Shown: positions 12,163-29,963 of the stretch, piece by piece
Layout: every line of letters begins with the position of its first letter
Position numbering within the stretch: the first letter of the stretch is position 1
DNA from: Parietichytrium sp. I65-24A
Lineage: Eukaryota > Sar > Bigyra > Thraustochytrida > Thraustochytriidae
Assembly: GCA_012862575.1 (NCBI GenBank)
Contig: BLSF01000008.1
Coordinates: 558,001-622,000 of the forward strand
DNA length: 64,000 bases
Direction of reading: 5' to 3'
Translations under genes and position numbers: made by a program
Notes under the pieces: generated by a model
The model's database searches: none
The model's input: the letters and a program-made list of their open reading frames with translations, nothing else
Told to the model about the DNA's origin: nothing

Positions 12163-12943
12163 GAGATTATGGCAACTTTACGCAATGGCTAGTCCCGCCT
12201 CTTCCTGAGAGACGCTGTGAGGGAGGGAGGGAGGGAGGGAGGGGTACTCGAGTACACCACCAGTACGCGCAGATCTTTAATACTCTCTCACTCTTTCCCT
12301 CTTTCCCTCTCTCTGTTCACTCTTCTGCTCTTCTGCTCTTCTGCTCTTCTGCTCTTCTGCTCTTCTGCTCTTCGCTGTGTCCCCGTCTCTCCGTCTAGGG
12401 TGCGCTAGACGCCGTTGTGCAGCGCAAATTTGCGAGGGGACTCAGGAAGGAGTTTTTGTGACTCGCGAAAGTTGGGCAGCAAGCCTGGGTGGCCAGTTGG
12501 CTTGGTAGAAGTCGATTAACTCATTGTTTTTTAAAACATTAATTAATCCATTTTTCAAAGCTTTTTTTTAACTTTTTATTTATTTTTTAAATTTTAAATT
12601 TTTGCACACGTCCCGTATACACACGTTAGTCATGAGGACTGTTCGATTGTTCTGTTATGTACCTTGTGTAGTAGAATGTATTTGATTTTGTTTGATGGTG
12701 AAAAAAACAAGAAAAATGTTGAATAGCAAGTGAGCAGGATTTGGTTCGAAATTGAAGTAATCTGTTACTGAGTACTGACTGTGAATGCCATTGTGCTAGA
12801 ACGACAACGCTCTTTCTGGCCACTGGTCTCGAGATCCTACTGTGCATTGGCTCGAAGACTAACTGGAAGGGCTTGAGCACATGCCTTGGTGGAAAGTCTC
12901 GCCAATCTTCGTGTGCATGGCGTAAGAAAAGGCCTGCAATCAA
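12163..12943. other. Intergenic with minisatellites and AT-rich block
   Basis: Holds (GGGA)n at 12219-12242, an 8-bp CTCTTCTG minisatellite of about seven copies at 12319-12373, and a strongly A/T-rich block at about 12530-12605. A GTAC-rich motif (12770-12790) is shared with other intergenic sites. No gene seen. Confidence 0.7.
12319..12373. repeat. 8-bp minisatellite, unit CTCTTCTG
   Basis: About seven near-perfect tandem copies in intergenic DNA upstream of the RING-like gene. Confidence 0.9.
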
Positions 12944-15364
12944 TCAGGAGAACTCGCACGCAGCAACGATTGGATCGTGGTCCGATGCGCGAAAAGGGGT
13001 GGAAGAGTCAAAGTAAGTTTCCGGAAGCTCTTTGCAGCCATACGGCTGCGTGTCATAGCCCTGGAATATATTCACATCTGAGTTGATGTGCCATGCCATT
13101 GCTTGCGAGCATTTTGATTTGAGGGTTGTGGTCGCAAAAGCGTAATCCAAGGTGGACCTGTACCCGTCGTAATTGTATGTGTACGTGTCCGTGGAAGAGT
13201 GGTTCAGGACCGCCTCAAAGTTGCCGCTGTTCAAGATTGCTTGGATTGGGCGCTCCATGTATTGGCTATTGAAATCCCCGGCTACAAAATGCATATCCGA
13301 CTCAGAATTAGTGGGGTCGGTGAGAATGTAATTCATCAGTTGATTCACATGGTTGAGCCTCGTTACAGAGCAACCGCCTTCGGCCTCGATGAGCTCCGTG
13401 TAGTCATCCGCAGAATCTTCTTGACACGTTTGCGATCGCGACTTGAGGTGCACTGTATGAAAGGTAAAAATATCTGTAGATCCGACGACTTTGAAACTTT
13501 GGGAAACGACTGGTCTTGAAAGAGTGCTCTCGATCGCATTCGCACTATCAAGATCCGAGAGCACATTACTGAACTCAAAGTGCACAGAGCTTCCCATGAG
13601 CTGTACAACTTCCGGTTGGTAGATAATCGCGCTTGTGATTGCGTCGGTTCCCAGGCCAAATCCATCATCATTCGCGGCCGGGGTTTCGACGTAAGCGTAC
13701 CGATCCTCCATCAAAAAGTCGTTTAGATCTTCGACGAGGTTGCGAAGGGTGTTATTGCTCCCGTCGTTCTGAATCTCCTCGAGTCCAAGCACAGCGGCAT
13801 CTAGCTCGGCAATCATATTAAACAACTTTGTCTGTTGCCTATCGAACTCGTTTACATTGTATGCACCACGGCACATTTTCTCCCCAGATGGCGAATAAAA
13901 GTCGCAATCATTGCTAAGGCTTTCGAAATAATTAAACATGTTTGCCGAACCGATGCGGATCCGAGTCCCACTGTTGTTTGGAAAGACATTGTTTGGTAGA
14001 GTCGCCTGCGGGGGATTGGTGCTAGTGTCAAAGCACGTCGGCAAATATTCTCTGCCGATTGCATGGGGCAAGAGCGTCCAGTCGCCGTACTCGTACGAGA
14101 AAACTGCGGCCCCACTCAGATTGGCGCTTGACAGCTTGTAGCCAACACGCAAGCTTTCAGAGCCTTCCACGGGCCACAGTGCAGGGTCCGGGCAACTGCT
14201 CTTGAGAGTGTCGTCCAGCACGAGCACCCTGCCATCGTCATTGTTCTCAGCTTCTTCCAAAGCATCCGTGTCTGTTGGAGATGTATACGAAGTGATGTCC
14301 AGCATCACCCCTCCTTGCGACAGGCGAACGTTCCCGTATTTTAGATCATATAAATCGGTGATGTACATATCTTCAGCCGCTTCCACAAGCATGCTGGCAA
14401 TGGCAGAACGTCCACTGCTCTTGTACGGGAATGTTATCGTCGCGACGTTGAGTGATCGGCAGGAAATAAGAGATCCCGGCCCACTAATGCGGACGTCAGG
14501 CGTGTTGCACAGTATCTGAACTGAGCTAGTCCACGTTTCGGTGAGCTTGATCTCATTCAACCCGCTGTAAACCGTCAAGGTGCCGTTGACGCGGACAAGT
14601 GACCCCTCCCTAAGATCCAGGGTGTCAGAGCAATACTGGCCGCAATAAACGAAAAGCCCTTCAGACACTGCCCGCTGATCCAGGTCCGCGCTGAGTTTTG
14701 TTTGCTGGATGTAGAATCCATATCTCGCGTTCACCACTTCGAGGGTCACGATTCCGTCGACCACCATTCGAGGGCTCGTCGAGAGGAAGTCTTCGTCGTT
14801 TGCGTCAACATTCGCCTGCTTGATTGTGTCGCATGGACTTAGCTCCAGCACAGCTTCGTCCTGGTAGAGGCAGATTCCGCTTGGAAGTAAAACATGCACT
14901 GTTGCAGTATGTTCGCATGTGGTTTCTGCAGCAACGCCTGCGAAAAGAGCCAACGACCCCAAAACGCTACCAGCGAAAGGGTTGTGCTGCCCCACGTACG
15001 CTGCGGTCGTGACAGCCCCGAGCTGTACGTAGGAAGCAGAAAGTGAGTTCGCTGAGCTCAAGTCCCCGTCTACATAGGCGTATACGAGGCTGAGATCGAT
15101 CTCTGCGACGGAGTTGTTGACAACGAGAATCTCCTCTGACCCAAGCCCGCCAGCCGCGTACTCGAGACGGATGGAAACCGTCGAGGATTCAGATTCGCCA
15201 GTTACGATAGAAAAGTCAAAGTTTTCGATACCAAGAATATTGATCTGCTGGACCTTCTCGTCAAGATCGAAGGTCAGCGGGGTTCGGGTAGTACATTCGG
15301 CTCCTGTCGCCAGGGTGCACGTGCGCGCGAAGGCAGTCAATGCCGCCAAGGATCCCAACCTCAT
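12944..15364 (-). CDS. Secreted ExeM-type extracellular nuclease, paralog A
   Basis: 806-aa predicted secreted nuclease. A signal peptide (about 1-22) precedes a beta-rich N-terminal domain with paired Cys. An OB-fold-like domain, as in YhcR/ExeM nucleases, lies at about 190-290. The endonuclease/exonuclease/phosphatase domain runs from about 470 to the end. Catalytic-type motifs are all visible: N-M-F-N-Y-F, E-F-D-R-Q-Q, L-E-E-I-Q-N (metal-binding Glu), H-L-K-S, A-G-D-F-N-S, S-T-L-D-Y and a final A-S-D-H-D-P. ExeM-family enzymes degrade extracellular DNA with divalent metal. There is no transmembrane helix or obvious anchor, so it should be released. It is single-exon and tandem with paralog B (16842-19415, same strand), which shares the whole layout except the Pro-Thr linker. 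The start is the ATG that opens the signal peptide. The eukaryotic substrate range is inferred. Confidence 0.92.
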   Translation of the reverse strand: MRLGSLAALTAFARTCTLATGAECTTRTPLTFDLDEKVQQINILGIENFDFSIVTGESESSTVSIRLEYAAGGLGSEEILVVNNSVAEIDLSLVYAYVDGDLSSANSLSASYVQLGAVTTAAYVGQHNPFAGSVLGSLALFAGVAAETTCEHTATVHVLLPSGICLYQDEAVLELSPCDTIKQANVDANDEDFLSTSPRMVVDGIVTLEVVNARYGFYIQQTKLSADLDQRAVSEGLFVYCGQYCSDTLDLREGSLVRVNGTLTVYSGLNEIKLTETWTSSVQILCNTPDVRISGPGSLISCRSLNVATITFPYKSSGRSAIASMLVEAAEDMYITDLYDLKYGNVRLSQGGVMLDITSYTSPTDTDALEEAENNDDGRVLVLDDTLKSSCPDPALWPVEGSESLRVGYKLSSANLSGAAVFSYEYGDWTLLPHAIGREYLPTCFDTSTNPPQATLPNNVFPNNSGTRIRIGSANMFNYFESLSNDCDFYSPSGEKMCRGAYNVNEFDRQQTKLFNMIAELDAAVLGLEEIQNDGSNNTLRNLVEDLNDFLMEDRYAYVETPAANDDGFGLGTDAITSAIIYQPEVVQLMGSSVHFEFSNVLSDLDSANAIESTLSRPVVSQSFKVVGSTDIFTFHTVHLKSRSQTCQEDSADDYTELIEAEGGCSVTRLNHVNQLMNYILTDPTNSESDMHFVAGDFNSQYMERPIQAILNSGNFEAVLNHSSTDTYTYNYDGYRSTLDYAFATTTLKSKCSQAMAWHINSDVNIFQGYDTQPYGCKELPETYFDSSTPFRASDHDPIVAACEFS

Positions 15365-16841
15365 TCTCTCAATCCCGCAAAAGTCTCCTCGCTTTCACCT
15401 CTCGGGTAATTGGGGACTGAAGTCAATGTGCCTGTCTGCCAAGAAATCAAGACTTGCGCAAACCGTGGCACCCCCAACAAGGTTCATGCAGTCCTGCTAA
15501 AAAGTTTAGAGTTTGTCGTGAGTCCTCTCATTCAATGTCAACGAAATTTGTAAGTCCCCACTCAGGCTCCACGTCAAAACTCAGCAGCTTAGGCCAAGCC
15601 ATTGTCGCTCTCTGAGTATGACCCAAACCGAAACGGGCGAGTTCGAGTGAGACTATTCCAGATGGCACTTTCCATACATCCACGGTCTAAAGCGACTCAC
15701 GGACGCTGTGTGACTGTGAGTTCAACGGCACTCTCCCAAACAATCGTCAACCAAAAAAGTGTATTTTCAGCGCTGCGTCACCCGGGATGCTGTGTACCGG
15801 TACTAGAACTTTAATTAATGCATTCTCTAATACCAAACAAACTAGAAAGCAACGGATACGAAAAAAAACTCTTTCAAAACGGAGAATGAGATGGAAAACT
15901 TTTCGGATTCTGTTGTCGACTTTTTTGTGAATTCGTAAATGATATACAACCAAGCTTGAAGCCTAATTGCGAGTAATTGTCAGCCTTCTCGAAGTGTTTT
16001 GGTCCCGCACTGAACAGACGGCGCGTTGCGCCACTCTTGACTCGCTCGAGGCAACCAGTCGTATACTTTCTATGTCGCGCGGAACACGAATGCCCGAGCG
16101 TGAAGCTGGAGATCCTCTGTCTTGACGGGCCAAGGGCATGCACACCAAACTCTTTCACTGAAGGCGCATGCAAAAGTAGCCGAAAAGCCGCGATATCAAA
16201 CTCTACCAAAGAAGTACTAATATCTCGGACTCCAATTGGCACATTTTAATAGGCATTTGGGTGGGGTGTTTTGCGTGTTTGGCGATATATTTGGCGTGCT
16301 TGAGTAGCTTGGGTGCTTCAAGTTGTCACGATATATTCCCCGTCAAGTCTCAATGATTTTTTCCCGGAATTTATTCTCGGGAGTCGTCTTTTCATTTTTT
16401 TTGGGGGGGGGAGTTTCTTCTTCTTTTNNNNNNNNNNNNNNNNNNNNNGGGGGGGGGGTTCCTCCTTGGCGTAGTGTCTTCTGGTCTTCTATCATCCCTC
16501 TCCCTCATGCATGCCCTTTCTTTCTCATATCTGGACCCCTTTCACGGTTTGAATGCTCTTGTAAAAGCCTCTCACCTTGCCGAATCTCAACTAGCTCTAG
16601 CTAGTAGAGAGATCTTACGTGTCCCATTGGTTTAGCTAGGCCAGTTTTTACTTCGAAGGACCGGGATCCGACTCCATCGGCGATGCGTGGACAAGGGATA
16701 ACTGTTCATGAAAAGAGGAAGAGGGCGATGATAGAGTAGAAATTTAGAAAAACTTGGCCAGGTCTTTATTAATGGCTAAACAACACATTGCGCTTTTGCG
16801 CGAGATACATATAAAGACGTAAACAGCTTGATGGGGCACAC
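15365..16841. other. Intergenic with short assembly gap
   Basis: No gene recognised between the two nuclease paralogs. A 21-base N run (16428-16448) sits inside a homopolymer: T then G runs on the left and G runs on the right. The region next to 15365 must contain the promoter of paralog A, and that next to 16841 the 3' UTR of paralog B. Confidence 0.7.
16428..16448. other. Assembly gap in poly-G
   Basis: 21 undetermined bases flanked by nine to ten G on each side; a typical sequencing failure in a homopolymer. Confidence 0.95.
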
Positions 16842-19415
16842 TTATGCGCTGAAGTCGCAGCTGAAGAGGATTGGGTCGTGGTCAGACGCGCGGAATGGAG
16901 TGGTTCCATCAAAGTACGAGTCTGGCTTGGTGCTGCAAGCGGTTGGATAGCTGTACTGGTCGCTAGTGTATGAGGTCACGATTGGCTCGTCAGAGTTGAT
17001 GTGAACCTCCACGGCATTGCCGCACTTGGTAGAGAGTCCAGAGGTGGCCAGGGCATAGTCGAGGGTGGAGCGCTTGCCATCATAGCTGTAGGAGTACGCA
17101 TCAGGGACGTCGTCAGCCATGGACTTCCAGCCCTGGGACATGAGGTACTCGATTGATCGCTCTTTCCTGTGGCTGTTGAAGTCTCCAACAAGGATACTTC
17201 CATCATTTCCGAGGCCGCTTACGTATGCAGCAAGCTGCTGAGCATGCAAGTAGCGAGTGTATCCGCAGTTCTGCTCGCCGTATGCCTGTGTCACGTTGCC
17301 AGCCGTTGCGTCCTCATCGCACGCGCTTCCTTTCGACTTCAAGTGGTTGGACAAAAAGTTGAACTTTGTGTCTTCGTTTCCTACAATCGAAAAAGTTTGC
17401 ATGACTGTGACGCGGGATTTTCCCTCTGGCACGTATTCTACGTATCCAGGCTCTCCAACTGGTTGGACAAGTGCCGGCTGGTAGATGATGGCGGTAGTGA
17501 TCACATCGCTTCCCACACCGGTTGCGTCGCCGTTGGTTTCGCGAGTGGCAACGTATGCATACTTGGTACTTCCGATGTGTGCGTTCAAGTTTGTGACGAA
17601 AGTGGCCAAAGCGCCTGATGCTCCGTTGTCCTCAACCTCCTGCAGACCAACTACAGCAGCGTCGAGAAGATCGACAGCGCGGATCAACTTTGCCTGCTGC
17701 CTCTCAAATTCCGCCTGATTGTCAGCTCCACGGCAGTCCGAGCAAGACTCTTGGAATGTGGTGAAGTAGTTGAGCATGTTCATGCCCGCAAAGCGGATCA
17801 CCTGGCTTGCTGCATTGTTTGCTGGTACGTTGTCAACAACGGTCAAGTCACGGGGGTTTGCGGTCATGTCAATACCCTCAGAGACTGTGGTGGCTCCAGT
17901 GGAGGTTGGGTACATGGTCCAGTCATCGTAGTCCACGGTCAGAATGACGGTTCCGTCAAGCACGGACGCTGGGACGAGGTTTCCAACTCTGACACCATTC
18001 GAGGCACCAATAGTCCACACCTGAGGAGTTGGGCAACTTGTGCTTGCACCATCATCCAACTTCAGATAACGAAGAGTGTTCGCGAGCGCGGCGGCATCCA
18101 CGATGGCTTGGTCTCCTGGAGCAACGGTCATAGTCTCAGCAACGAGGGCACCGTCCACGGAGAGGCCCAGACTTCCGTACTTGAGTTCGTAGGTGTTGGT
18201 GACGGTAAAGGTCTTGTCAAAGCTCACAAGCATGTTGTGGTGAGAGTAGTGCGACTCCCATGAGGCAGCTGGCATTGTGACCGACTTGATGTTGACTTCA
18301 TCACAGAATTTGGCAGAAGCTGCACCAACAGTGACTGTCTTGTCAGTGCAAAGAACCTCGAAGTTTCCTCCGGCTGCGGTGAGTGTGGTCTGGGTCAGCT
18401 GATATGCTTTGTAGTAGATGCTTGATGTACCTGTGACTTTGACGCGGTCTCCCTCAGCGAAAGACAGGCCGGTGGAGCAACCACTACCGCAGTAGATAAA
18501 GATACCTGCGGAGGCGTCGGTGGAGTCCGCATCATCAGCAGCTTTGGTCATCTGCAGGGAAAAGCCTTTCCTTCGCTCGCGCAGGTCGTTCACAACAACT
18601 CCTTCCACAGTGTATGTACCAGTGACACCTTGGCCGAGAGCTGCGTTGACGGTCTTGATGCTTGACGCTGCGACGGAAGCAGTTGGAGCGGTGGTTGGGG
18701 TGCCAGCAGATGCAGTTGGAGCGGTGGTTGGGGTACCAGCAGATGCAGTTGGGGCGGTGGTTGGGGTACCAGCAGATGCAGTTGGGGCAGTGGTTGGGGT
18801 ACCAGCAGATGCAGTTGGGGCGCTGGTTGGGGTACCAGCAGATGCAGTTGGAGCGCTGGTTGGGGCAACTTCGCCGCATGGTGCAAACGAGAAGGTCTTA
18901 CTTGATACATCAAGACTATCAGTACTTGCGCAAAGGCTTGCAGGGAGCCGAATGTTAATACGAGCAATGTGTTCGCACCCAGCCTCTCCGTTCACGCAAG
19001 TTGCAAGCCCCAGAGCTCCGACCAGAGCACCGAGTTTTGGGTTCTCCTGGGCGATTACAGCAGCACTGGCGATGGTGGTCGCTTTTTGCATGGTTGAGCG
19101 GACACCGGAAGCCGACGAAGTATCCGGAGAACCGACCACAGAGGAGAAGTCGATAGTTCCAACAGTGCCGTTCACGGAAAACATGCTTGCGCTACCGGCA
19201 TTCGCGGCATTGTACTCCATAGAGATTTCCACCATGTCAGAAGACGACTCGCTGACGCCCATCGCATAGCTGACTTCGTCTGCACCAGCAAGCTGAATAC
19301 TGCGGAGGGTGGAGTCTGCGGAGAACTCAAGGCTCTCCTGGCTCTCGCAGCGAATGGCATTCGCGCCCTTGGCTGCGATGGTCGCGAGGACCGCAGCCGA
19401 GACAACTCCTTTCAT
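16842..19415 (-). CDS. Secreted ExeM-type extracellular nuclease, paralog B, with Pro-Thr repeat linker
   Basis: 857-aa paralog of the nuclease at 12944-15364. A signal peptide (1-20) is followed by a beta-rich domain to about 183 that shares the C-E-H-x-A and L-P-x-x-x-C landmarks with paralog A. Residues 184-247 are six tandem decapeptides of the type PT(S/T)APTASAG, a probable O-glycosylated spacer missing from paralog A. The OB-fold-like domain is at about 255-350. The endonuclease/exonuclease/phosphatase domain fills the last 330 residues: N-M-L-N-Y-F, E-F-E-R-Q-Q, L-Q-E-V-E-D, H-L-K-S-K, G-D-F-N-S-H, S-T-L-D-Y and A-S-D-H-D-P. All catalytic-type residues are present, so it should be an active, soluble, secreted nuclease. 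The start is the only ATG giving a signal peptide. The pair probably arose by tandem duplication. Confidence 0.92.
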   Translation of the reverse strand: MKGVVSAAVLATIAAKGANAIRCESQESLEFSADSTLRSIQLAGADEVSYAMGVSESSSDMVEISMEYNAANAGSASMFSVNGTVGTIDFSSVVGSPDTSSASGVRSTMQKATTIASAAVIAQENPKLGALVGALGLATCVNGEAGCEHIARINIRLPASLCASTDSLDVSSKTFSFAPCGEVAPTSAPTASAGTPTSAPTASAGTPTTAPTASAGTPTTAPTASAGTPTTAPTASAGTPTTAPTASVAASSIKTVNAALGQGVTGTYTVEGVVVNDLRERRKGFSLQMTKAADDADSTDASAGIFIYCGSGCSTGLSFAEGDRVKVTGTSSIYYKAYQLTQTTLTAAGGNFEVLCTDKTVTVGAASAKFCDEVNIKSVTMPAASWESHYSHHNMLVSFDKTFTVTNTYELKYGSLGLSVDGALVAETMTVAPGDQAIVDAAALANTLRYLKLDDGASTSCPTPQVWTIGASNGVRVGNLVPASVLDGTVILTVDYDDWTMYPTSTGATTVSEGIDMTANPRDLTVVDNVPANNAASQVIRFAGMNMLNYFTTFQESCSDCRGADNQAEFERQQAKLIRAVDLLDAAVVGLQEVEDNGASGALATFVTNLNAHIGSTKYAYVATRETNGDATGVGSDVITTAIIYQPALVQPVGEPGYVEYVPEGKSRVTVMQTFSIVGNEDTKFNFLSNHLKSKGSACDEDATAGNVTQAYGEQNCGYTRYLHAQQLAAYVSGLGNDGSILVGDFNSHRKERSIEYLMSQGWKSMADDVPDAYSYSYDGKRSTLDYALATSGLSTKCGNAVEVHINSDEPIVTSYTSDQYSYPTACSTKPDSYFDGTTPFRASDHDPILFSCDFSA
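18675..18866 (-). repeat. 30-bp coding tandem repeat (Pro-Thr-Ala-Ser linker)
   Basis: About six 30-bp units inside nuclease paralog B. Each encodes a decapeptide PT(S/T)APTASAG or close variant. The units differ by only a few bases (for example at Ser/Thr codons), which points to recent expansion and possible length variation between strains. Confidence 0.95.
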
Positions 19416-22400
19416 CTTGTTTGGCTCTCTTCTCGATTCGCAATGTGCTGCACGAAAGCACTCTTTCGAGACTGCTTGTGCTTTTGCTTGGGCGGATGAG
19501 TTTGGGATCTGAATCCACAGTCAATGTGCTTGGCTCAACAAATCAATCTCGTGCTCTTAAGCATCGGCCACGGGCTTTCTTCCTACTGTACTGAGTACCG
19601 TACTGCAAAACTCTGTCGAGCGTGGCCCAGAGCGCTGGCACAGTTGTGCACAGGTTGTTTCAACCATTTCACAGGAGCTGCGAACTTTGAAATGCTGAAA
19701 AAGAGCACCGTAAGTGTTGCCAAACATAGGTTCCAGTAGTGTGCCACAGATGAACAAAGCAACCTCCCTTAGGGAGCTTGGCTGTTTTCGCACAGGGTTG
19801 CTTCACTGTACGTCAGTCGGTACAGAAGGACAATTACCAAGGAACCTCTACTACCTTCTCAAAAACTACAACACCTGTGTTTGCAACGGAGATTCTCCTG
19901 CAGCTAGAAACGAAGCTTCTGGAGAGCCCGAGCTCGTTTAATTAATGTAGCTAGCCGAGAACCTTGGCTTTCTTTCTCCCTAGGCACATTTCCAGACAGG
20001 CTAGACCAGAGGAAAGTAAGGTTTGCAGTTCGTCGCAATGCGATAGGACCAGTTTTCGAGTAGGTTTCTGGCGTCTTTGGACTCTTTGGTTAGTGTGCCG
20101 ACCAACAGACACCTTGCATGCCCGATCCAGGAAGTGATGCTGACTGTTCCAAACTTCAACAGACACGCAGGTCACAGAGATGGACGGACGCGACTGGCAC
20201 TAGTACTGCCTGTGCCACTGCATTCATTGCGTTTACATTATTACCTTGGAGGTAACTTCAATTTAGCCAGCTGGTCTGTCGCGTTTACAAGTGAAAGATT
20301 CGCCGTGAATGACGAGACAAATTGCTTTATCGGCCGGTCTGTCAGGCCAGGTCCATGCGTTCTTGTCGATTGGGGCTACAAGGCGCGTTCGGAGATGAGT
20401 CAAAGACTCTTCCAGCCGACGGAAAAATTTGGGAGAGCCCGGGGCTTCCAGGGCGACAAAATCTATCTCCCTGTCACAACGCGACAAGATGACAGACAAC
20501 GTGTGCGCTGGTTTACATCGATTTCATGGAAAGGGCGAACTGAGCTCGATTCGATTGCACACTAATTAATACAGCAAGCAGCCTTCGGGGAACTCGTAGG
20601 TGGGTGTGGAAATCGACACAGTGCGCAGTGCCCAGTGCGATCTACGGCTAAGTGGTGCTAGCCAATACCGAGACGACCCCGCTCACTGTAACCCACCAAG
20701 CCCTCATTCTCGCACAGCCGGCACACTCACTACGCACTTCTTTCATACCTTTCGTATCATGATCAGAGAAAACGGAACGGAAAAAGTCTTGCAAGTAAGT
20801 CATGTTCTTCTTCTGCGAAATTAGTTGACCTTCATTCACCCACTACTGAGCACTGGGTGGAGCTTTGAGCTATTCCTAAAATGCCACTACTAAGCGCTGT
20901 GGCATGTAGTCATGAAAACCATTTTCGAGTGATCGTGTGAATCTTCCCTCTTCCCTCTCTCGGCATCAACGCAGAGAGCATCCTGGGTCCTCAACACTGC
21001 CGGCACACTCGGCGCCTTTCGCCTCGCTCATGCGTCATCCAGAGAATTCAGAGGACTCGTCAACCCCTTTTTTTGTCCAGGAGACGCCACCAGATCTCGA
21101 GTGAAACACCGCTTCTAGAGTATTTCAAGGGTTGTCAAGCTTGTTGTCACCCAAGTGTCCCTCTCTCGCTCGTACGGTACGGCAATAGTGCTAGCTAGCA
21201 CTCTCCGTCCAGCGCTAGCCGGATGACGCTTTCTTTCCCGCTTTCCCAGCCACTTAGCAGGCTGGTGATGGTACTGCTAATCTCTCCGCAGGCGAGTGAA
21301 GAAAAAGGAGGTCCGCTTTTAACGTTGATATCAATCAATGAAGGAATAACAGTTACTTCTGAATTCTGATGATCAAGCGAAATATAAACAGGCTGAGGTA
21401 GCACCAGAAGAATTTTACTTTCTTCGGGCCGTCTGGCTCGCAATCCAGAGCTCATAAAGTTCAGTATTTTGATTGAAAACTCAGAAGTCAGAATGGCCTT
21501 TCGATTCTTGATTCTTGACCATGTCGGATCCATTTCGTGGGGGGTGTGCGCTATACAAGAAAAAGTTACTTTCACGGTCTCCATGCATGTATGACATGTT
21601 TGGAGTAGTCGCACAAGTAAGCTGGAATGGGAGTCAAGGAAAGTACAGAGAATTCTTTTCTGAAATGATTGTGAAAGAAAATGCTTTTCGTAAGCTTTTG
21701 TGTGTCGAAATGTGCTGAGCGAGCAATGCATGCGCCATGCGAAAAAGAAAGTCAGCACATAAGGTTCGAACTGTTCACTGCTTTAAAGCAATCCCTTCGA
21801 GACAAGAGCATGAGACTATGGAGCATGTAAGTCGCCTGTCGCGAACCAACTCACTCGTTTTCGATATTGGGCATGGCAAGAATGGCAAGAACGATATGAG
21901 GTGAGACATAGCTCGACGTTTCGATGCGAGTCATGCCAACGTTGGCTCATTCGTATCGATTGCGATGTCGGAAGGCAAGACATTTCCGAGGGGCTCTTTG
22001 AGTCAGGAATCTCAAATATTCACGGCGCAAACCAGTTGTTCAACATCGAATCACGGAGATTCAAAAAGCGCCACCGCAGACTTCGCATTCACTCACCGCT
22101 CACAAGGATGATCAAAAAAAGTCCATTGATCAAGGGCAGGAGAGTCCATATCCCACTTGTCAAGTCCAGAAATCAAAACATGTCGATCTCGCTTCTTCTA
22201 AATAAAATACTGGATTCCGAATTTGGACACAGCGAACTTCTGAGCTCTTGCAAACCACTCTACTCGGAAGGTCCTGGCGATTGCATGTGTTTGCACGGTG
22301 CACGTGTTTTGGTGCGCCCTCCTCCCCCCGCTCCCCAGCAATCCATAGAAACACAGTTAGCACACCACTTTCACCTCCCCCTTGGTCTCTAATGCGCGAT

Positions 22401-24352
22401 AGCACATACTAACACTCCAGCAGTGAATCTCGCCAACTGCTACGGCTTGTCTTACCAGGCTCCTGTGATTTCCTAAGCTACTCTAAGCGCCAGAGGATAC
22501 ATTTTCAGGTAGATGCGCATAAGCATCCGTCATAGAGCACGTTCTGTGTCGCCAATTAGCCGAGGTATTAGTGTACATTCATTCACGGCAATTGCAGTCT
22601 GGACGGTGCAACTTGCGGAGCTGGCGAAGGGCTATTAGTGTTTATTAGGAGATTAGTGGTTGGGGGGAGAAAGTATCATGAGTAGAAAGAGCTTTGTGCT
22701 TTATGAGCGCAAGTTCGGAGGTACTCACAGTCAGTACTCAGTACTACAGTTATCTTTGAATGTTGAAAGTAATTTCGATCTGTGGAATGGCTGGCCTGTG
22801 CCGTGAATCATCAATTTCACTTAGCAGGATTTCTTTATTCACCGATAGACTCGTACCGTCGCTCTTGCTGGTTGTGAGCGGGGGAGGCAAGAAGTGGCGA
22901 GGGCGCAGAATGGGTGGATGCTGGCGTTCTCCTTACGAAAGCGGGGTGCAAGGCTGCACCCATGCCCTCCTCCGCACGGTGCAAGTGAAAGTCACATCCA
23001 CTTTCATTTCACGTTACCATGGTACCGTCTTGCGAATCCCGAGTTGGTGTTCTAGAAATGCTAAACTAGTTCGATGGAATGTTTTGATTCTCAAGAAAAC
23101 GATTGAGATGGATCGGCAGTGAGTGTTGACTGACTGTGAATGCACAATGAAGTGGTGAATTTTTGTTTTTTGAAAAGGTCTGCGCAGCGACAGTACTAGT
23201 ACTGAGTACTCCCCCTGTGAGATAGACTTCCTTCAGATCACTCGTGAAGCGCTCCTTCGTGAGCGAGATGTAGATGTACAAGAAGTAACAAATCGAGAAG
23301 CGGCACAAGCAAAGCGAAGCAAGGAAAGGAGAAATTGAAGATGCATTATCGTTGCAAAAGAATGTACAGTGCTAATTGTGTTAGGTTGGTCGTGAGCACA
23401 TTTCCAACATTAACTCTAGCCAATCGCATATATTCAATTTACAGACCATTCCAATTGTTTTTTTACATCTTCTGTATTACAATGGAGTGAACAAGATGAT
23501 GTTGTCTCCATCCTTCGCGCGTCAGGTTGTGACATGGAAAGGTAAGCCTTGGCCTTGCCTGGCGTAGAGTACAGGGGCATAGGAATTTGCGAAACTGTCC
23601 TATGTACTAATAGCATCAAGCTCGCTAGTGCCCTAGAATCATGGTGACACGCTCACACACACTTCGAAAGCTCAGACAGACCTTTCGCAATAATTGGTGT
23701 GAGTGACCGATGAACCGGAATATTTTTCGAGTCGCGGGTGTGTGTCCGTCCGTGTACGAGTTTCTTCTCTTGTGTAGTGGACCCAGTTCTCACAAGGCCT
23801 ACAGAGATCAGAGTAACCGTGCCAGGAAAGGGGTCTAGACCACGCTACGCGGAACAAAGGGGTGTGCACCGGTTGTAAGTGGGACAAGGAACTTGCACTT
23901 GTAATAAAATGGCTTTGACTGTGAGATTCAAATTGGAGAATCTTCTGTCGCCTCTCAAGCACGAGACAATTGCTTTGCATGACTACTGATATTTTTAAGG
24001 CGAGCTATTTTATCGTGACCAAGGTCTTGTCGACATGCTGGGATGCGCGTGGTGACTGTCGTAGCGGTCGGTCACTGCCACTTAGAACAGGAGTTCAATA
24101 AATAGTGTGTACTTTTGATCAGAGAATTGTAATAGCAAATGAGAAAGCGGAAAGTACAAACGCTCATAAAAACAGACGAACAGCTCAGAGGTACCCTACA
24201 ACTACTCAATCAGAAAGTAACATATCATTAGTTGTGATGTGTGCCTTGCTTAGGTAGATGGGTGAGGTCGGTGTCTGCCTCGGCAAACACCAAACCCGTC
24301 TGGAGGCCGACACGAAGAATCGGATTTGCGATACCTTTGCTCAGCAACAACC
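19416..24352. other. 4.9-kb region between nuclease and nucleotidase pairs, no gene recognised
   Basis: The largest gene-free stretch in the window. Its open frames (up to about 190 codons, for example 20077-20565 +, 21195-21758 -, 21901-22392 +) have no recognisable domain and uneven composition, and I do not call them genes. Both ends are 5' regions: paralog B nuclease is transcribed leftwards and nucleotidase 1 rightwards, so regulatory DNA of both must lie here. GTAC-rich palindromic motifs occur at about 19590-19606, 22721-22746 and 23191-23208. A non-coding RNA or a multi-exon gene with very short exons cannot be excluded. Confidence 0.6.
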
Positions 24353-26374
24353 ATGAAGACCGTCCTTGCATCTGCCGCCCTCGTCGCAGTGGCTCAGGCT
24401 GTTGACTTTGAGGTCCTGCACATCAACGACTTTCATGCCAAGGTCGATGGTCTGAACAAGTACGCCTCGACCTGCGATCCATCGAGTGACTATTGCGACG
24501 GTGGATGGCTCCGCCTCTTCACTGCTGCCAAGAAGTATGTTGCGGCTAGCGACAAGAAGATCATTTTCGTCGATGCAGGAGACGAGTTCATGGGAACCAT
24601 TTGGGACACCTTCTACAAAGGTGCCGAATCGGCACGATTCTTGAACAAGCTCTGTGCTCCAGCAGCAGAGGGAGGTGCTGGCTTTCATGCTTGCATTACC
24701 ACCTACGGAAACCATGAGTTTGACTACGACTACAAAACCCTCGCGGCCTACGCCAACAATCTCACGAACGTTCACTACATTTCCACCAACGTCGTTGACA
24801 GCTGCACCTCCGGAGAGTATGGCGCCGGTGTCACTAAGACCCTTGCTGAAACCGTCAAGAAGTCTGTGAACATTGACATCGATGGCACCAATGTCACCTT
24901 CATGGGGTACACCACTCCGGACACCGTTGCTCTCTCCAGCCCATTGGCATGCATGACCTTCGCGGACGAGGTAACTGCTCTCACCGAACACATGGCGACT
25001 GTTACTGATTCCAACATCTTCGTCGCCGTCGCGCACAGTGGGTACGCCAAGGACCAGGAAATTGCAGCGGCTCTTTCAGGAATTGATATCATCATTGGGG
25101 CCCACTCCCACTCCTTCCTGTACACCGGAACGGCGCCATTTCCCGCAGTTGCACCAGAGACTCTTGACGCAAAGAGATCCGCTGACACTCCAGAAGGCGC
25201 GTACCCAACTATGGTTGGCAATGTTCCTGTCTTTCAGGCGTTCTGGGGTGGCCGATACATGGGTCACTTCACGGCTTCTTTCAACGCTACGGGTGACTTG
25301 ACTGATATCTCCGGAAACCCAATCATTTTGGCCCAAAATGGCACCAAGCCATTTGGACAGGATAAAGAAGGCGAGACCTTTGAGTATGACGAAGAGGCAC
25401 TCAAGATCTACAACGAGCTTGAGGCTTCAGTGACTGCATTCGGCGCGGAAGTCATCGGAGCGACTGAAAGTTTTTTGTTCGCAGGTAAAGTTGGGCGCAA
25501 GGGCGAGAGCAACTTTGCTGACTATGTCTGCGATAAGATGATTTCTTCATTCAACAATGACACATCATTTGTGAGCAAATACGGCAAGGTGGACTTTGCA
25601 CTCATGAACGCTGGTGGCTTGCGCGAAGAAATTCCAGTTGGAGATATCAAGGTCATGAATGTATACGCAGTTTTTCCTTTCGGAAACAGTATTTCTTTGA
25701 AGAAGGTCAAGGCAAGCGACATCTACTTGGCCTTGGAACACGGTCTGGAAGGTTTTACCTACGACACCACTGATCCAGCTGGAAAGTTCCCGCAAGTTGG
25801 AGGGTTCAAGTTCCAGTGGAACTCCAGCGCGCCTTCTTCTTGCTCAGCAAAAACTTGCATCGACGGCGTTATCCCAACTCGCGTGCAGAACGTCACCGTT
25901 AACGGCGTGCAGCTGGACTTTGACAGCGAAACCGAATACAACCTGATGACCAACAACTATTTGGCAGCCGGAGGTGACGGCTACACTATTCTGAAGAACG
26001 CGGAGACTGTGCTAGACACCGGAAGAATTCTCGCCGCGTTCGTGGCTGATATGATCAAAGCCGATGGTAAAATCAGCCCAAAGACTGACTGCCGTAACTA
26101 CGATGTAGAGACAGGCTGCGTTGATCTTTTCACCAACGCGCCAACCGCAGCACCAACCAAATCACCAATTTCAGTCAATGTTACTACTGTTGCACCAACA
26201 GCTTCAAATGAAACAGTCACAGAAGAAACTGAAGAGGCGAGCCGCGGGGTGATGATTGCTGTTTCTCTTGCTGCCGTCATTGGATTTGCTGTCCTCGGCG
26301 GGGCTGTATACGCTTTGTCCTCGAAGCTCTGCAAGAAGCCTGAGGAGGATGCTATTGTTTCCGACAAGGTTTAA
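24353..26374 (+). CDS. Ecto-5'-nucleotidase, paralog 1, C-terminal membrane anchor
   Basis: 673-aa 5'-nucleotidase (UshA/NT5E family) expected to dephosphorylate extracellular nucleotides to nucleosides and phosphate. A signal peptide (1-16) leads into the calcineurin-like metallophosphatase domain: D-F-H with D26 and H28, DAGD at 74-77, GNHEFD at 119-124, and G-A-H-S-H near 246-250. The substrate-binding 5'-nucleotidase C-terminal domain follows, with N-A-G-G-L-R (the Arg binds substrate phosphate in the family) and an A-G-G-D-G-Y loop. A Thr/Pro-rich stalk then leads to one transmembrane helix at about 633-655 and a short Lys-rich tail. The anchor is a helix, not the GPI signal of animal CD73. 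I start at the second in-frame ATG (24353), because the first, at 24326, would place nine residues before a good signal peptide. Tandem with paralog 2. Confidence 0.94.
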   Translation: MKTVLASAALVAVAQAVDFEVLHINDFHAKVDGLNKYASTCDPSSDYCDGGWLRLFTAAKKYVAASDKKIIFVDAGDEFMGTIWDTFYKGAESARFLNKLCAPAAEGGAGFHACITTYGNHEFDYDYKTLAAYANNLTNVHYISTNVVDSCTSGEYGAGVTKTLAETVKKSVNIDIDGTNVTFMGYTTPDTVALSSPLACMTFADEVTALTEHMATVTDSNIFVAVAHSGYAKDQEIAAALSGIDIIIGAHSHSFLYTGTAPFPAVAPETLDAKRSADTPEGAYPTMVGNVPVFQAFWGGRYMGHFTASFNATGDLTDISGNPIILAQNGTKPFGQDKEGETFEYDEEALKIYNELEASVTAFGAEVIGATESFLFAGKVGRKGESNFADYVCDKMISSFNNDTSFVSKYGKVDFALMNAGGLREEIPVGDIKVMNVYAVFPFGNSISLKKVKASDIYLALEHGLEGFTYDTTDPAGKFPQVGGFKFQWNSSAPSSCSAKTCIDGVIPTRVQNVTVNGVQLDFDSETEYNLMTNNYLAAGGDGYTILKNAETVLDTGRILAAFVADMIKADGKISPKTDCRNYDVETGCVDLFTNAPTAAPTKSPISVNVTTVAPTASNETVTEETEEASRGVMIAVSLAAVIGFAVLGGAVYALSSKLCKKPEEDAIVSDKV

Positions 26375-27947
26375 AAATATACCTTGAGAAAAAGTGCTTG
26401 CTCGAGCGTGTCCACAGATGTTGATGGCCGTTTCGTTTGTGTTTGTGTTCGTCCATAGAGTGTTTTTCACGCCCAGAGTAAAAAGCGACACCCATATAAT
26501 ATCAAAAAATCTATGTTTTCGCTGTCAGTGTGAGAAAGTTTTTGACAGTTTGTTGGCTTTTTTCAGAACCAGTAAAGGAAACAAACCATCACTTCGAGCA
26601 AAATTTAGAGTACTTCTTCTGTTTGTGCCAAGCCATCAGGTCAGGTACGTCTCGATCGGCAGGTTTCTGCGACAGTCAAGTTATCGTTTCTTTCCTCCCC
26701 GGGAGAATTAATCGCCATAGTCTTTAAGTTAAAGAGTGTATTACGACAGCCGAAGAAAATGCCCTCGTTCCTCATCCCACTATGGCAGAGGTTACAGCTG
26801 CTCACTGTCGTTCGCCTCCGCTGCAACTGCTCGTTCTTCCCACCGCCTCCTTGAGAGCATAGTGTGACTAGCAAGCATCCAACAACACATTTACTTTCCT
26901 CCTTTTCACAGCTAGAGCCAGGCCCGAATCTGCGCTATTCCGGCCATCGCAGCTCCGGCCCCGGAATGTCCACTTCACACTTTCGAACCCATTTTCCGCC
27001 TCGTGCAGCGGGCACATCGTCGCAAATCGTCGCCATCGATCCGAGTCGCATCATCGCATAACGACTTGGGATAGGCGTTAAAACCATCTGAGCACAGCCC
27101 CACTCAGGCTCGCCACCGAGTTGAGAAAGTACTCAATCAGTACACTAAGTATTCGGTACCACCAGTACACACCAGCGCGTGATGTTGGCAAAGCGAGAAG
27201 CTACGCGCTCTCGTAGACTTCAGGTCGCCTATCGCTGGCCACCTTGGGCGCACTGGGCCCAACTGGTGCCGAGAATTTGGCAATAACTGATATTGACGGC
27301 TCTGCTGGGCTAAGAGTGCCTGGCACTCGGCGAGGAGACTGCCTTCCAGCGGCACAGAAGTTCTTTTCAGATGTTGACCGCACGTGGCTTGGCTCTTTTC
27401 GTGAAGTCGCTATTGATTGGCAAGCAATTACCCATGTAATTATCGCAACGCCCACTTCAACTATTTGTTGCTGTTGTTGCATGGTTGCTGTTGCGCAAGC
27501 TTTGCTAGAGTCGTGTGATTCGCCGTCATGGGTTTTTTCATGAACAATGCGGCAAAGTAGAGCAGAACATTCACGGTCTCGCCCACTCTGCCCAAAAAGC
27601 AGTTATTGGGAAATGTGGAATTTGAGGTAAAGTTGGCAGGGGCGAGTGATGGCGAGTGGCGAAGATGCAAATAGTTTGGGGAGATTCGAGGAGTGAGTGA
27701 TAGTGAGTGCACGAGTAAGTTGTGGTGCACGACGACGAAAGTACTGGCAAATGTTGTTGGCCTAAATACTCTTAAACGTCCCAGTAGCGCGAGCCGCGCG
27801 AGCTTTGTTGGTGTATGTTTGCATAGAGCATTGGCATTGCAGCTCGACGAAGGTAAAATACAGGTAGAGTAGACTCTGAGTCTGCACAAGAGATCGAGTG
27901 CCGAAAGCAGTTCCCAATTACAGAAGAGACACGGAGAGCACGCAAAG
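26375..27947. other. Intergenic between nucleotidase paralogs
   Basis: No recognisable gene. It contains the 3' UTR of nucleotidase 1 and the promoter of nucleotidase 2. A GTAC-rich stretch lies at about 27128-27173. Confidence 0.6.
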
Positions 27948-29963
27948 ATGAAGTCTGTCTTAGCTGCATGCGGCTTGATCGCCGCAGCTCATGCCCTCGA
28001 GTTTGAGGTCGTTCATATCAATGACTTCCACGCCAAGGTGCAGGGGCTCACGAGCTTGAGTTCTGACTGCAGCAACGTCACCACCGGACTCTGTGATGGA
28101 GGTTGGCCAAAGGTGTTTTCTGCAGCGAAGCAAATTGTCAAGGATGCTGGCGACCGCAAAGTCATCTTCGTGGACGCCGGGGATCAGTTCATGGGATCTG
28201 CTTGGGACACGATCTACAAAGGCCAGCAGACCGTGAGGTTCCTCAACAAGCTCTGTGCTCCGGCTGAAGAAGGCGGTGCAGGATTCCATGCGTGCGTCTC
28301 TACCTTCGGAAATCACGAGTTTGACTACCCTTACGAGACGCTCGTGAACTACACCTCCAAGCTCACCAACATCAAGATGCTCTCTTCAAATATCAACGAC
28401 GGATGTGAAACCGGAGCTTTGAAAGCAACATACAGCAACTCTACCGTGATCGATGTTGATGGCACCAAAGTGGCGTTCGTGGCCTACACCACTCCAGATA
28501 CCGCTATCATTTCCAGCCCGGCAAATTGCATTACGTTCACTGAGGAAGTTACCGCAATCAACGCGGAGATTGCGAAACTGAAGGCACAAGAAGACCCTGC
28601 CTCTGTTTTCATCGCAATTGCTCACAGCGGCTACTCGCGTGATCAGGAAATTGCCGAAGCGGTTTCAGATGTGGACATCATCATTGGTGCCCACAGCCAT
28701 ACTTTTCTTTGGGACACGGACACCATGGGCAGCCTACCAACGCTCTCGGGCTATAACACTACCGATGCAAAAAGTTTGCTGGGCAAGTATGCTACTGTGA
28801 AGAATGATATCCCAATCTTTCAATCCTTTTGGGCTGGCAGGTACATGGGTCATTTCACCACTGAATTCTCGGAGGATGGAATTCTCACCAGCTACAAACC
28901 TCAGCAGATCTTGGTCGGGAGCAACATCAGTGGTACAAATACGCAGGAAAAGTACAGATACGAGCTTGATGAGACTGCCATGGAGATCATCAATGAATTG
29001 CAACCCGCAGTGATTGCGTTCTCTAGCAAGGTTCTCGGCTCTTCTCAGGTTCTCCTGAGCACTGGCTCGACACAGGAGACTAACATGGGTAACTTCATTT
29101 GCGACTCCCTGATTGAGAGCCTCAAGAATTCCGACAACTTCGTCAGCTCTTTTGGTCTGGTTGATGGCTGCATCATGAATTCCGGAGGCATTCGATCAAA
29201 TATCGCCCCCGGAGAAGTCACCGTTGGAAACGTGGTGGCAACACTTCCATTTGGAAACGTTGTCTCCGTGATGGAGCTCACTGCGAAACAGCTTTACCTC
29301 ACCCTCGAGCACGGTCTCTACAGGGCCGGCTCCGGAGCCGGTGAGTTCCCACAGATTGGAGGCTTCACCGTAGAGTACAACTCCTCTGTGGCTTCGGTAT
29401 GCAATGGCTCAGGGTGCCTGAGTGGTGAATTCGAAGGCACCAATAGGACAAAGGCAATCTACGTCAACGGCGAACTGGTTGCGTTTAACAGCACGAAGAC
29501 CTTCAAAGTCGTCACCAACGACTATTTGACTCGCGCAGGCGATAGCTACTTCGTCATGCAGAGCGGGAAAACTCTTCTTGCAACAGGAGAGGTTCTTGAC
29601 GTTGTTATTCAAGATGCATTTAAGGCTGCTGGGTCCACTGGCGTGACCGCTAAAGTTGATGGCCGCCTCAAGGATCTCGCCGGTGAAGTTTCTGATGATG
29701 ATGATGATGATGGTGGTGATGAAGGTGGTGATGATGGTGGTGATGATGGTGATGATGATAGCACTGGCGATAACGGCGGCACTGGTGCTACCGATGGCTC
29801 TGCAGAGGAAGACTCCCTTAGCACTGGCGCGCTGGTCGGTATTTCATTGGGTGCAGTCCTTGGATTTGCCGTTTTAGTTGGCGTAGCAGTTGCTGTGAGT
29901 AAAAAGGCTTCTGCGCCGCGGGAGGATGAGCAGAAAGACGCTGTCCAATTCCCTAACCTTTGA
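27948..29963 (+). CDS. Ecto-5'-nucleotidase, paralog 2, Asp-rich stalk and membrane anchor
   Basis: 671-aa paralog of the upstream nucleotidase with the same order of parts. Signal peptide (1-16), metallophosphatase domain with I-N-D-F-H-A-K, DAGDQ, GNHEFD and G-A-H-S-H, then the C-terminal domain with N-S-G-G-I-R and a T-R-A-G-D-S-Y loop. The stalk differs sharply from paralog 1: residues about 580-610 are almost all Asp and Gly, followed by a Gly/Thr/Ser stretch. One transmembrane helix (about 628-650) and a charged cytosolic tail end the protein. Catalytic residues are intact. It should act at the cell surface or in the secretory/endocytic lumen on nucleotides released by the neighbouring nucleases. 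The start is the ATG opening the signal peptide. No introns. Confidence 0.94.
   Translation: MKSVLAACGLIAAAHALEFEVVHINDFHAKVQGLTSLSSDCSNVTTGLCDGGWPKVFSAAKQIVKDAGDRKVIFVDAGDQFMGSAWDTIYKGQQTVRFLNKLCAPAEEGGAGFHACVSTFGNHEFDYPYETLVNYTSKLTNIKMLSSNINDGCETGALKATYSNSTVIDVDGTKVAFVAYTTPDTAIISSPANCITFTEEVTAINAEIAKLKAQEDPASVFIAIAHSGYSRDQEIAEAVSDVDIIIGAHSHTFLWDTDTMGSLPTLSGYNTTDAKSLLGKYATVKNDIPIFQSFWAGRYMGHFTTEFSEDGILTSYKPQQILVGSNISGTNTQEKYRYELDETAMEIINELQPAVIAFSSKVLGSSQVLLSTGSTQETNMGNFICDSLIESLKNSDNFVSSFGLVDGCIMNSGGIRSNIAPGEVTVGNVVATLPFGNVVSVMELTAKQLYLTLEHGLYRAGSGAGEFPQIGGFTVEYNSSVASVCNGSGCLSGEFEGTNRTKAIYVNGELVAFNSTKTFKVVTNDYLTRAGDSYFVMQSGKTLLATGEVLDVVIQDAFKAAGSTGVTAKVDGRLKDLAGEVSDDDDDDGGDEGGDDGGDDGDDDSTGDNGGTGATDGSAEEDSLSTGALVGISLGAVLGFAVLVGVAVAVSKKASAPREDEQKDAVQFPNL
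29693..29766 (+). repeat. GAT/GGT trinucleotide-rich coding tract
   Basis: Imperfect GAT-GGT repeats encoding the Asp/Gly stalk of nucleotidase paralog 2. Likely to vary in length by slippage. Confidence 0.9.

What the first reader, a model, noticed from the sequence alone, without database searches (positions are those of the whole stretch)
12944..29963. Four-gene locus for external nucleic-acid breakdown: two secreted nucleases plus two ecto-5'-nucleotidases
Two signal-peptide nucleases of the ExeM/EEP type and two signal-peptide, membrane-anchored 5'-nucleotidases lie side by side with no other recognisable gene between them. The enzymes act in series: nucleic acid to nucleotides to nucleosides plus phosphate. 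Each type is present as a tandem paralog pair. Functional clustering of this kind is common in bacteria and less usual in eukaryotes. It suggests a co-regulated scavenging system, perhaps for phosphate or nucleosides, in an osmotrophic protist.
Basis: partly seen in the sequence, partly recalled or inferred. Interest (0 to 1): 0.78.

Follow-up and report, generated by a model that had tools for sequence, protein, structure and literature searches.

The report
Protist nuclease and nucleotidase gene cluster
A single-celled eukaryote carries, side by side, two genes for likely secreted DNA/RNA-cutting enzymes and two for likely surface enzymes that strip phosphate from the resulting nucleotides, a pairing also seen in some bacteria; it looks like a nutrient-scavenging set, but shared control of the four genes has not been shown.

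Summary
Confirmed: four uninterrupted genes at 12944-29963. N1 and N2 (minus strand) exceed the curated cut-off of the ExeM/NucH extracellular nuclease family. NT1 and NT2 (plus strand) are CD73-like 5'-nucleotidases with a signal-like N-terminus and a C-terminal membrane segment. Catalytic motifs are intact; no gene was found between them. They are 4 of 6 members found of these two surface families in the 42.5 Mb genome; the others lie alone on contigs C21 and C82. Chance adjacency is roughly 0.05-0.2%, ignoring hindsight.

The pairing exists in bacteria: one Arthrobacter protein fuses both domain sets, and in 249 Pseudomonadota genomes 3 of 31 ExeM places have a 5'-nucleotidase within 5 kb (0.18 expected within 10 kb), one divergent. 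Serial breakdown of external nucleic acid is the best reading, though clustering is a minority arrangement even there.

Not shown: co-regulation. A promoter-word search gave nothing specific to the locus; nucleoside transporters are unlinked. Eukaryotic relatives could not be searched; the organism is unidentified. NT1/NT2 form a tandem pair, but N2 is closer to the distant C21 copy than to N1.

Verdict: real, modestly interesting; a eukaryotic variant of a known bacterial pairing.

The parts
12944..15364 (-). N1: ExeM/NucH-type nuclease, 806 aa; weakly signal-peptide-like N-terminus, unnamed N-terminal domain, ExeM/NucH core with C-terminal EEP catalytic domain; no C-terminal TM
14810..15313 (-). 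N1 N-terminal domain (residues 18-185), in the place where Shewanella ExeM has a Lamin Tail Domain; no Pfam match listed even at E<=10
   Evidence: weak model only
16842..19415 (-). N2: ExeM/NucH-type nuclease, 857 aa, signal-peptide-like N-terminus
18643..18898 (-). 33-bp tandem repeat in N2 coding an 11-aa Thr/Ala/Pro-rich linker between the N-terminal domain and the nuclease core
18861..19364 (-). N2 N-terminal domain (residues 18-185), shared with N1 and the C21 paralog; no Pfam match listed
19416..24352 (.). 4,937-bp divergent intergenic region between the 5' ends of N2 and NT1; no gene found; no second copy found in the genome
24353..26374 (+). NT1: CD73-like 5'-nucleotidase, 673 aa from the ATG at 24353
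26237..26332 (+). NT1 C-terminal transmembrane segment (residues 629-660)
27948..29963 (+). NT2: CD73-like 5'-nucleotidase, 671 aa
29814..29912 (+). NT2 C-terminal transmembrane segment (residues 623-655)

Best explanation
The locus encodes the extracellular half of a nucleic-acid scavenging route. N1 and N2 are exported and released and cut external DNA and/or RNA (inferred from family). NT1 and NT2 stay anchored in the plasma membrane by a C-terminal TM with the catalytic domains outside, and dephosphorylate the 5'-nucleotides to nucleoside plus phosphate at the cell surface (inferred). Nucleosides could then enter by ENT-type transporters encoded elsewhere, and phosphate by its own transporters (inferred). 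The four genes are two adjacent families pointing away from a 4.9 kb region in which no gene was found. Shown here: identity of the families, intact catalytic motifs, signal-like N-termini (weak in N1), C-terminal TM segments on the nucleotidases, adjacency, and a recurrent pairing of the two enzyme types in bacteria. Inferred: activity, substrate, nutritional role and any shared control.
For: NF033681 above cut-off for N1 and N2. EEP motifs GL(E/Q)E, HLKS, GDFN and SDHDP present in all three paralogs, fitting the metal- and phosphate-binding residues listed for Shewanella ExeM (PMC6085458, passages). NT1 and NT2 best match venom and animal 5'-nucleotidase structures, with NDxHA, DAGD, GNHE, HSGY, GAHSH, MN(A/S)GG(L/I)R, PFGN and NxYLxxxGD present. 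C-terminal TM in NT1 and NT2 only. 4 of 6 surface-type members found lie in one 17 kb stretch. Bacterial pairing: Arthrobacter LTD+EEP+Metallophos+5_nucleotid_C in one 1,649-aa protein; 3 of 31 Pseudomonadota ExeM places within 10 kb of PF02872, 0.18 expected, Poisson p 0.0009. In two of these pairs both proteins carry the same extra domain, RTX repeats or DUF4214. Three ENT-type transporters over cut-off in the genome.
Against: No expression, activity or localisation data. No locus-specific shared promoter word. No PF02872 match was found on contig C21, where the third ExeM-type gene lies, and no ExeM-type gene on C82, where the third surface 5'-nucleotidase lies, so linkage is not obligatory. 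ENT genes are unlinked; the only one on the same contig is about 197 kb from N1. For 28 of 31 bacterial ExeM places no 5'-nucleotidase was found within 10 kb, and 9 of the 28 genomes searched gave no PF02872 match at all. The signal-like character of N1 is weak. A 4.9 kb gap is long for a bidirectional promoter.
Confidence: 0.6

Rival explanations
1. Accidental neighbours: local duplication within two unrelated secreted-enzyme families happened to leave them next to each other; no shared regulation or selection for linkage.
For: N2 is closer to the C21 gene than to N1 (48% against 38%; clade support 99/95), so copies move. No shared locus-specific promoter word (138 of 364 random gap triples had a best word at least as good as CACAGTCA). 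The unlinked C21 and C82 members persist.
Against: Rough chance of one ExeM locus adjoining one 5'-nucleotidase locus is about 0.05-0.2% (assuming 10,000-15,000 genes), before allowing for post-hoc choice. The same pairing recurs in bacteria.
Confidence: 0.28
2. Same enzymes, other purpose: remodelling or clearing extracellular DNA (own matrix, neutralising DNA nets, antibacterial or prey lysis) or tuning extracellular nucleotide signals, with phosphate or nucleoside gain secondary.
For: Bacterial ExeM and Xds act in biofilm control (PMC6085458, passages; Xds: start of abstract in the listing). CD73-type enzymes end purinergic signals in animals (recalled).
Against: Two nucleotidases beside two nucleases fit complete breakdown better than matrix cutting alone. 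Diatom 5'-nucleotidases are listed for organic-P hydrolysis in a review of P limitation (PMC8301168, table passage).
Confidence: 0.1
3. NT1/NT2 mainly hydrolyse other substrates (NAD, UDP-sugars, cyclic nucleotides), so the two gene pairs are not one pathway.
For: Matches to NadN, UshA and 2',3'-cyclic phosphodiesterase models, all far under their cut-offs. NT2 has AGDSY where NT1 has GGDGY, and where the top CD73 match has R in RECN, NT2 has Q.
Against: Best matches to solved structures are venom and animal 5'-nucleotidases, well ahead of NadN and UshA.
Confidence: 0.05

Closest known systems
Bacterial ExeM/NucH + 5'-nucleotidase pairs and fusions (Arthrobacter WP_237762418.1, locus L051; unnamed Pseudomonadota loci L082, L083, L084)
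   Same: Same two enzyme families. Divergent (L083, ORFs 217 bp apart), in tandem (L082, 58 bp apart) or with one Endonuclease I gene between (L084); fused in L051.
   Different: Some bacterial forms carry a Lamin Tail Domain or RTX/DUF4214 domains; the nucleotidases of L082 and L083 showed 5_nucleotid_C but no Metallophos match at E<=0.001. The window genes have an unnamed N-terminal domain on the nucleases, TM-bearing nucleotidases, two copies of each, and a 4.9 kb gap.
Shewanella oneidensis ExeM / Vibrio Xds
   Same: ExeM/NucH core with the same EEP residues as ExeM; extracellular (ExeM: PMC6085458, passages; Xds: listing only).
   Different: No LTD found, no GlyGly-CTERM; NF033680 (ExeM-GG) far under cut-off: 134 and 105 bits against 1300.
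Animal ecto-5'-nucleotidase (CD73) and venom 5'-nucleotidase
   Same: Two-domain metallophosphatase with shared motifs.
   Different: C-terminal TM segment with short tail instead of the GPI anchor of CD73 (recalled).
Leishmania major p1/s1 3'-nucleotidase/nuclease cluster (LmjF.30.1460-1510)
   Same: A eukaryotic cluster of secreted and TM-bearing enzymes for extracellular nucleic acid and nucleotide cleavage (PMC13232948, passages).
   Different: Six genes of one class I nuclease type doing both steps; the window uses two unrelated families, one per step.

Membership tests
ExeM/NucH extracellular endonuclease (NF033681) | Score over the curated cut-off (300 bits) | tested here: met
   352 (N1) and 381 (N2) bits over nearly the whole profile
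ExeM/NucH extracellular endonuclease (NF033681) | EEP catalytic residues (E, H, N, D-H as listed for ExeM) | tested here: met
   Invariant in the 3 paralogs and in N1, N2 and 3 bacterial relatives; motifs; residue list PMC6085458
ExeM/NucH extracellular endonuclease (NF033681) | YhcR-like OB-fold region before the EEP domain | tested here: inconclusive
   NF033681 aligns from profile position 1, but no separate OB-fold model was tested and the structure model is poor (mean pLDDT 43)
Shewanella-type ExeM | N-terminal Lamin Tail Domain | tested here: not met
   No LTD hit in N1 or N2 or in their N-terminal domains at E<=10 (HMMER filters drop most hits above about 0.1)
Shewanella-type ExeM | C-terminal GlyGly-CTERM anchor / ExeM-GG model | tested here: not met
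   NF033680 134 and 105 bits against cut-off 1300; no C-terminal TM
Ecto-5'-nucleotidase (CD73-like) | Metallophos + 5_nucleotid_C domains over cut-off | tested here: met
Ecto-5'-nucleotidase (CD73-like) | Conserved metal/phosphate motifs | tested here: met
   NT2 deviates at GGDGY (AGDSY) and at the arginine of RECN (Q)
Ecto-5'-nucleotidase (CD73-like) | Extracellular, membrane-anchored | tested here: inconclusive
   Signal-like N-terminus and C-terminal TM by hydropathy; no dedicated predictor or experiment
Ecto-5'-nucleotidase (CD73-like) | 5'-nucleotide hydrolysis | not testable with these tools
   needs enzyme assay
Co-regulated eukaryotic nutrient gene cluster | Physical adjacency of functionally linked, unrelated genes | tested here: met
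Co-regulated eukaryotic nutrient gene cluster | Shared regulation | tested here: inconclusive
   Sequence-only test found no specific promoter word; no expression data
Co-regulated eukaryotic nutrient gene cluster | Conserved gene order in relatives | not testable with these tools
   no eukaryotic genome collection available

The most novel reading that the evidence does not exclude
A eukaryote has assembled a co-induced, divergently transcribed cluster for external nucleic-acid phosphorus/purine scavenging from a bacterial-type secreted nuclease, refitted with a new N-terminal domain in place of the LTD, and membrane-anchored CD73-like nucleotidases, arriving at the same gene pairing that some bacteria use as a neighbouring pair or a fusion.
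Probability: 0.25. Interest if true: 0.6.

Novelty: new variant of a known kind. Interest (0 to 1): 0.4.

Why it matters
Extracellular DNA is reported to play a key role in deep-sea phosphorus cycling and to feed bacteria such as Shewanella (PMC6085458, passages). A protist gene set for the whole extracellular route would make eukaryotic use of that pool testable with a few genes, and would be an example of eukaryotic clustering of unrelated enzymes acting in series.

Tried and rejected
Shared promoter motif. CACAGTCA occurs in 3 of 4 cluster promoters (600 bp) and 0 of 46 background promoters; 0.5% of 200 random sets of four had an equally good 8-mer (no 7-mer was in all four, and the best 6-mer was matched by 54.5% of sets). 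It also occurs 6 times in the two upstream gaps of the unlinked paralogs, where about 0.9 was expected from other intergenic DNA. Rejected as locus-specific: it ranked only sixth among words shared by the three gaps, 138 of 364 random triples of large gaps had a best word at least as good, and 85 of 364 equalled or beat the focal best word. The word is over-represented genome-wide, 5,293 against 1,298 for the reversed control. The recalled Pho-type sites CACGTG and GNATATNC were found once in the four promoters (NT2) and not at all.

Hidden gene or mobile element in the 4.9 kb centre: no coding signal in 5 ORFs scored, no Pfam match over cut-off for the 3 largest, no second copy found. Small exons are not excluded.

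Structure. AlphaFold model of N2 poor (mean pLDDT 43). Model of the N-terminal domain: one of five models at 58, the others 31-37. Neither was used and no fold search was run.

PHROGs gave only one unnamed family, for NT1 and NT2.

Trees, rows dropped: 1 of 34 bacterial ExeM rows (L067, under 350 residues); 3 of 6 bacterial 5'-nucleotidase rows (under 300 residues) and one locus (L047) without a match.

Organism. 18S fragments only. Published labyrinthulomycete assembly sizes seen in passages (PMC6050695; PMC10101102) do not match 42.54 Mb. Not identified.

Literature. No title or abstract start in the listings described this cluster: 20 of 55 papers listed; 1 of 1; 15 of 24; 4 of 4; 12 of 572; 7 of 7; 3 of 3; 7 of 8; 10 of 29. 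By word start, nuclease and nucleotidase have 0 occurrences in the main texts of PMC6050695, PMC13345962, PMC10101102 and PMC12221091. Supplements were not available, so novelty is unproven.

Full report
What is there. Four long uninterrupted ORFs lie at 12944-15364(-), 16842-19415(-), 24326-26374(+, likely start 24353) and 27948-29963(+). N1 and N2 pass the NCBIfam ExeM/NucH cut-off (352 and 381 bits against 300) and the Pfam EEP cut-off. NT1 and NT2 carry Metallophos plus 5_nucleotid_C over cut-off. Their best PDB matches by sequence are venom and animal 5'-nucleotidases (E 2.7e-55 and 5.2e-61), far ahead of NadN and UshA. Neighbours are EMP70 and a RING-like protein (under cut-off) on one side, an amine oxidase and BBS2 on the other.

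Anatomy. Catalytic motifs are intact in all four, and the EEP residues agree with those listed for Shewanella ExeM (PMC6085458, passages). NT2 departs from CD73 at two substrate-side positions (AGDSY for GGDGY; Q for the arginine of RECN). N-termini are signal-like by hydropathy, weakly so in N1 (1.77, against 1.59 and 1.53 in two paralogs taken as intracellular). Only NT1 and NT2 have a C-terminal TM segment. The nucleases carry a ~165-residue N-terminal domain with no Pfam match listed at E<=10, where Shewanella ExeM has a Lamin Tail Domain (PMC6085458); N2 adds a Thr/Ala/Pro repeat linker. Two structure predictions were too weak to use.

Between the genes. The central divergent gap is 4,937 bp, with no second copy found in the genome. 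The five ORFs scored there have codon scores below those of real genes, and the three largest have no Pfam match over cut-off. It is the second longest of 61 gaps between ORFs of at least 200 aa in 264 kb of this genome; that sample includes 10 kb stretches which truncate long gaps.

In the genome. The searches of the 42.5 Mb genome found 3 ExeM-type genes and 6 PF02872 genes, of which three are of surface type: NT1, NT2 and a C82 gene with a C-terminal TM. So 4 of 6 surface members found sit in the window. In a tree with 33 bacterial rows (two of them identical; one of 34 candidates dropped as short) the three nucleases form one group (100/100), with N2 and the C21 gene as sisters (99/95) if the root lies outside the group. 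NT1 and NT2 are sisters with the C82 gene outside (97/98, 9 rows, several long branches). No second linked pair was found: no PF02872 match on C21, no ExeM-type match on C82. Three ENT nucleoside transporters pass the cut-off (4 matches in all); the only one on the same contig is about 197 kb from N1. With 10,000-15,000 genes assumed, chance adjacency of an ExeM locus and a 5'-nucleotidase locus is about 0.05-0.2%, a figure that ignores hindsight.

Bacterial comparison. tblastn of N2 hits 53 of 72,556 plasmid records; of the 40 listed, 30 are annotated ExeM/NucH. Among the 40 of 232 records listed for NT2, one Arthrobacter gene annotated as ExeM/NucH also matches the 5'-nucleotidase; Pfam finds LTD, EEP, Metallophos and 5_nucleotid_C in that one protein. 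Of 249 Pseudomonadota genomes, 28 have an ExeM match at E<=1e-40, 31 places in all. 19 of those 28 genomes have PF02872, 40 places. 3 of 31 ExeM places have one within 10 kb, 0.18 expected, Poisson p 0.0009. Reading those three loci: one tandem pair 58 bp apart, both with RTX repeats; one divergent pair 217 bp apart, both with DUF4214; and one run of 5'-nucleotidase, LTD-Endonuclease I, ExeM. In the first two the nucleotidase showed 5_nucleotid_C only, without a Metallophos match at E<=0.001. The pairing is thus recurrent but a minority arrangement.

Regulation. A search for shared promoter words gave a promising word that failed its controls. No claim of shared control is made.

Literature. 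Eukaryotic clustering of ecto-nucleases has a precedent in the Leishmania major p1/s1 cluster (PMC13232948, passages). Diatom 5'-nucleotidases are listed for organic-P hydrolysis in a review of P limitation (PMC8301168, table passage). ExeM is an extracellular DNase with biofilm and DNA-nutrition context (PMC6085458 passages; PMC3929857 passages). The listings, several of them partial, showed no paper on this cluster.

Judgement. The most likely meaning is the extracellular half of nucleic-acid scavenging; its activities are inferred from well-known families, and co-regulation remains open.

Noticed in passing
window 12766-12784 (+) and 22725-22743 (-): An exact 19-mer, TACTGAGTACTGACTGTGA, occurs twice here and 144 times in the genome at up to 2 mismatches (1 for the reversed control): a short dispersed sequence of unknown nature.
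   Followed up: partly
genome-wide; window e.g. 19516, 23131, 23916: CACAGTCA is about four times over-represented in the whole genome (5,293 against 1,298 for the reversed control). GTACTCAGTA and GTACTGAGTA are the non-simple 10-mers found in most 500-bp bins (16 and 15) of the 264 kb sampled. Perhaps genome-wide regulatory or repeat words.
   Followed up: partly
L002 and L025/L026 (C82:52233-55055): Third surface 5'-nucleotidase: its N-terminal ~170 residues look LTD-like by eye (VWINEINY..., no Pfam hit), and a later cysteine-rich part gives an ShK match under cut-off (E 0.008) before the TM.
   Followed up: partly
L084:1304-9199: Unnamed Pseudomonadota three-gene run: 5'-nucleotidase, LTD-Endonuclease I, ExeM-type nuclease, all on one strand, a likely extracellular DNA utilisation operon.
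   Followed up: partly
L040: A 3' fragment of 18S rRNA follows sequence that looks by eye like a copia-type retroelement end; possibly an rDNA insertion or an assembly join.
   Followed up: no
window 15365-16841: The gap between N1 and N2 contains 21 N in a G-rich tract, a small unresolved assembly stretch.
   Followed up: no
window 4313-6511: One ORF joins an inositol monophosphatase domain to an EcKL/APH-type kinase-like domain, which looks like an unusual fusion.
   Followed up: no
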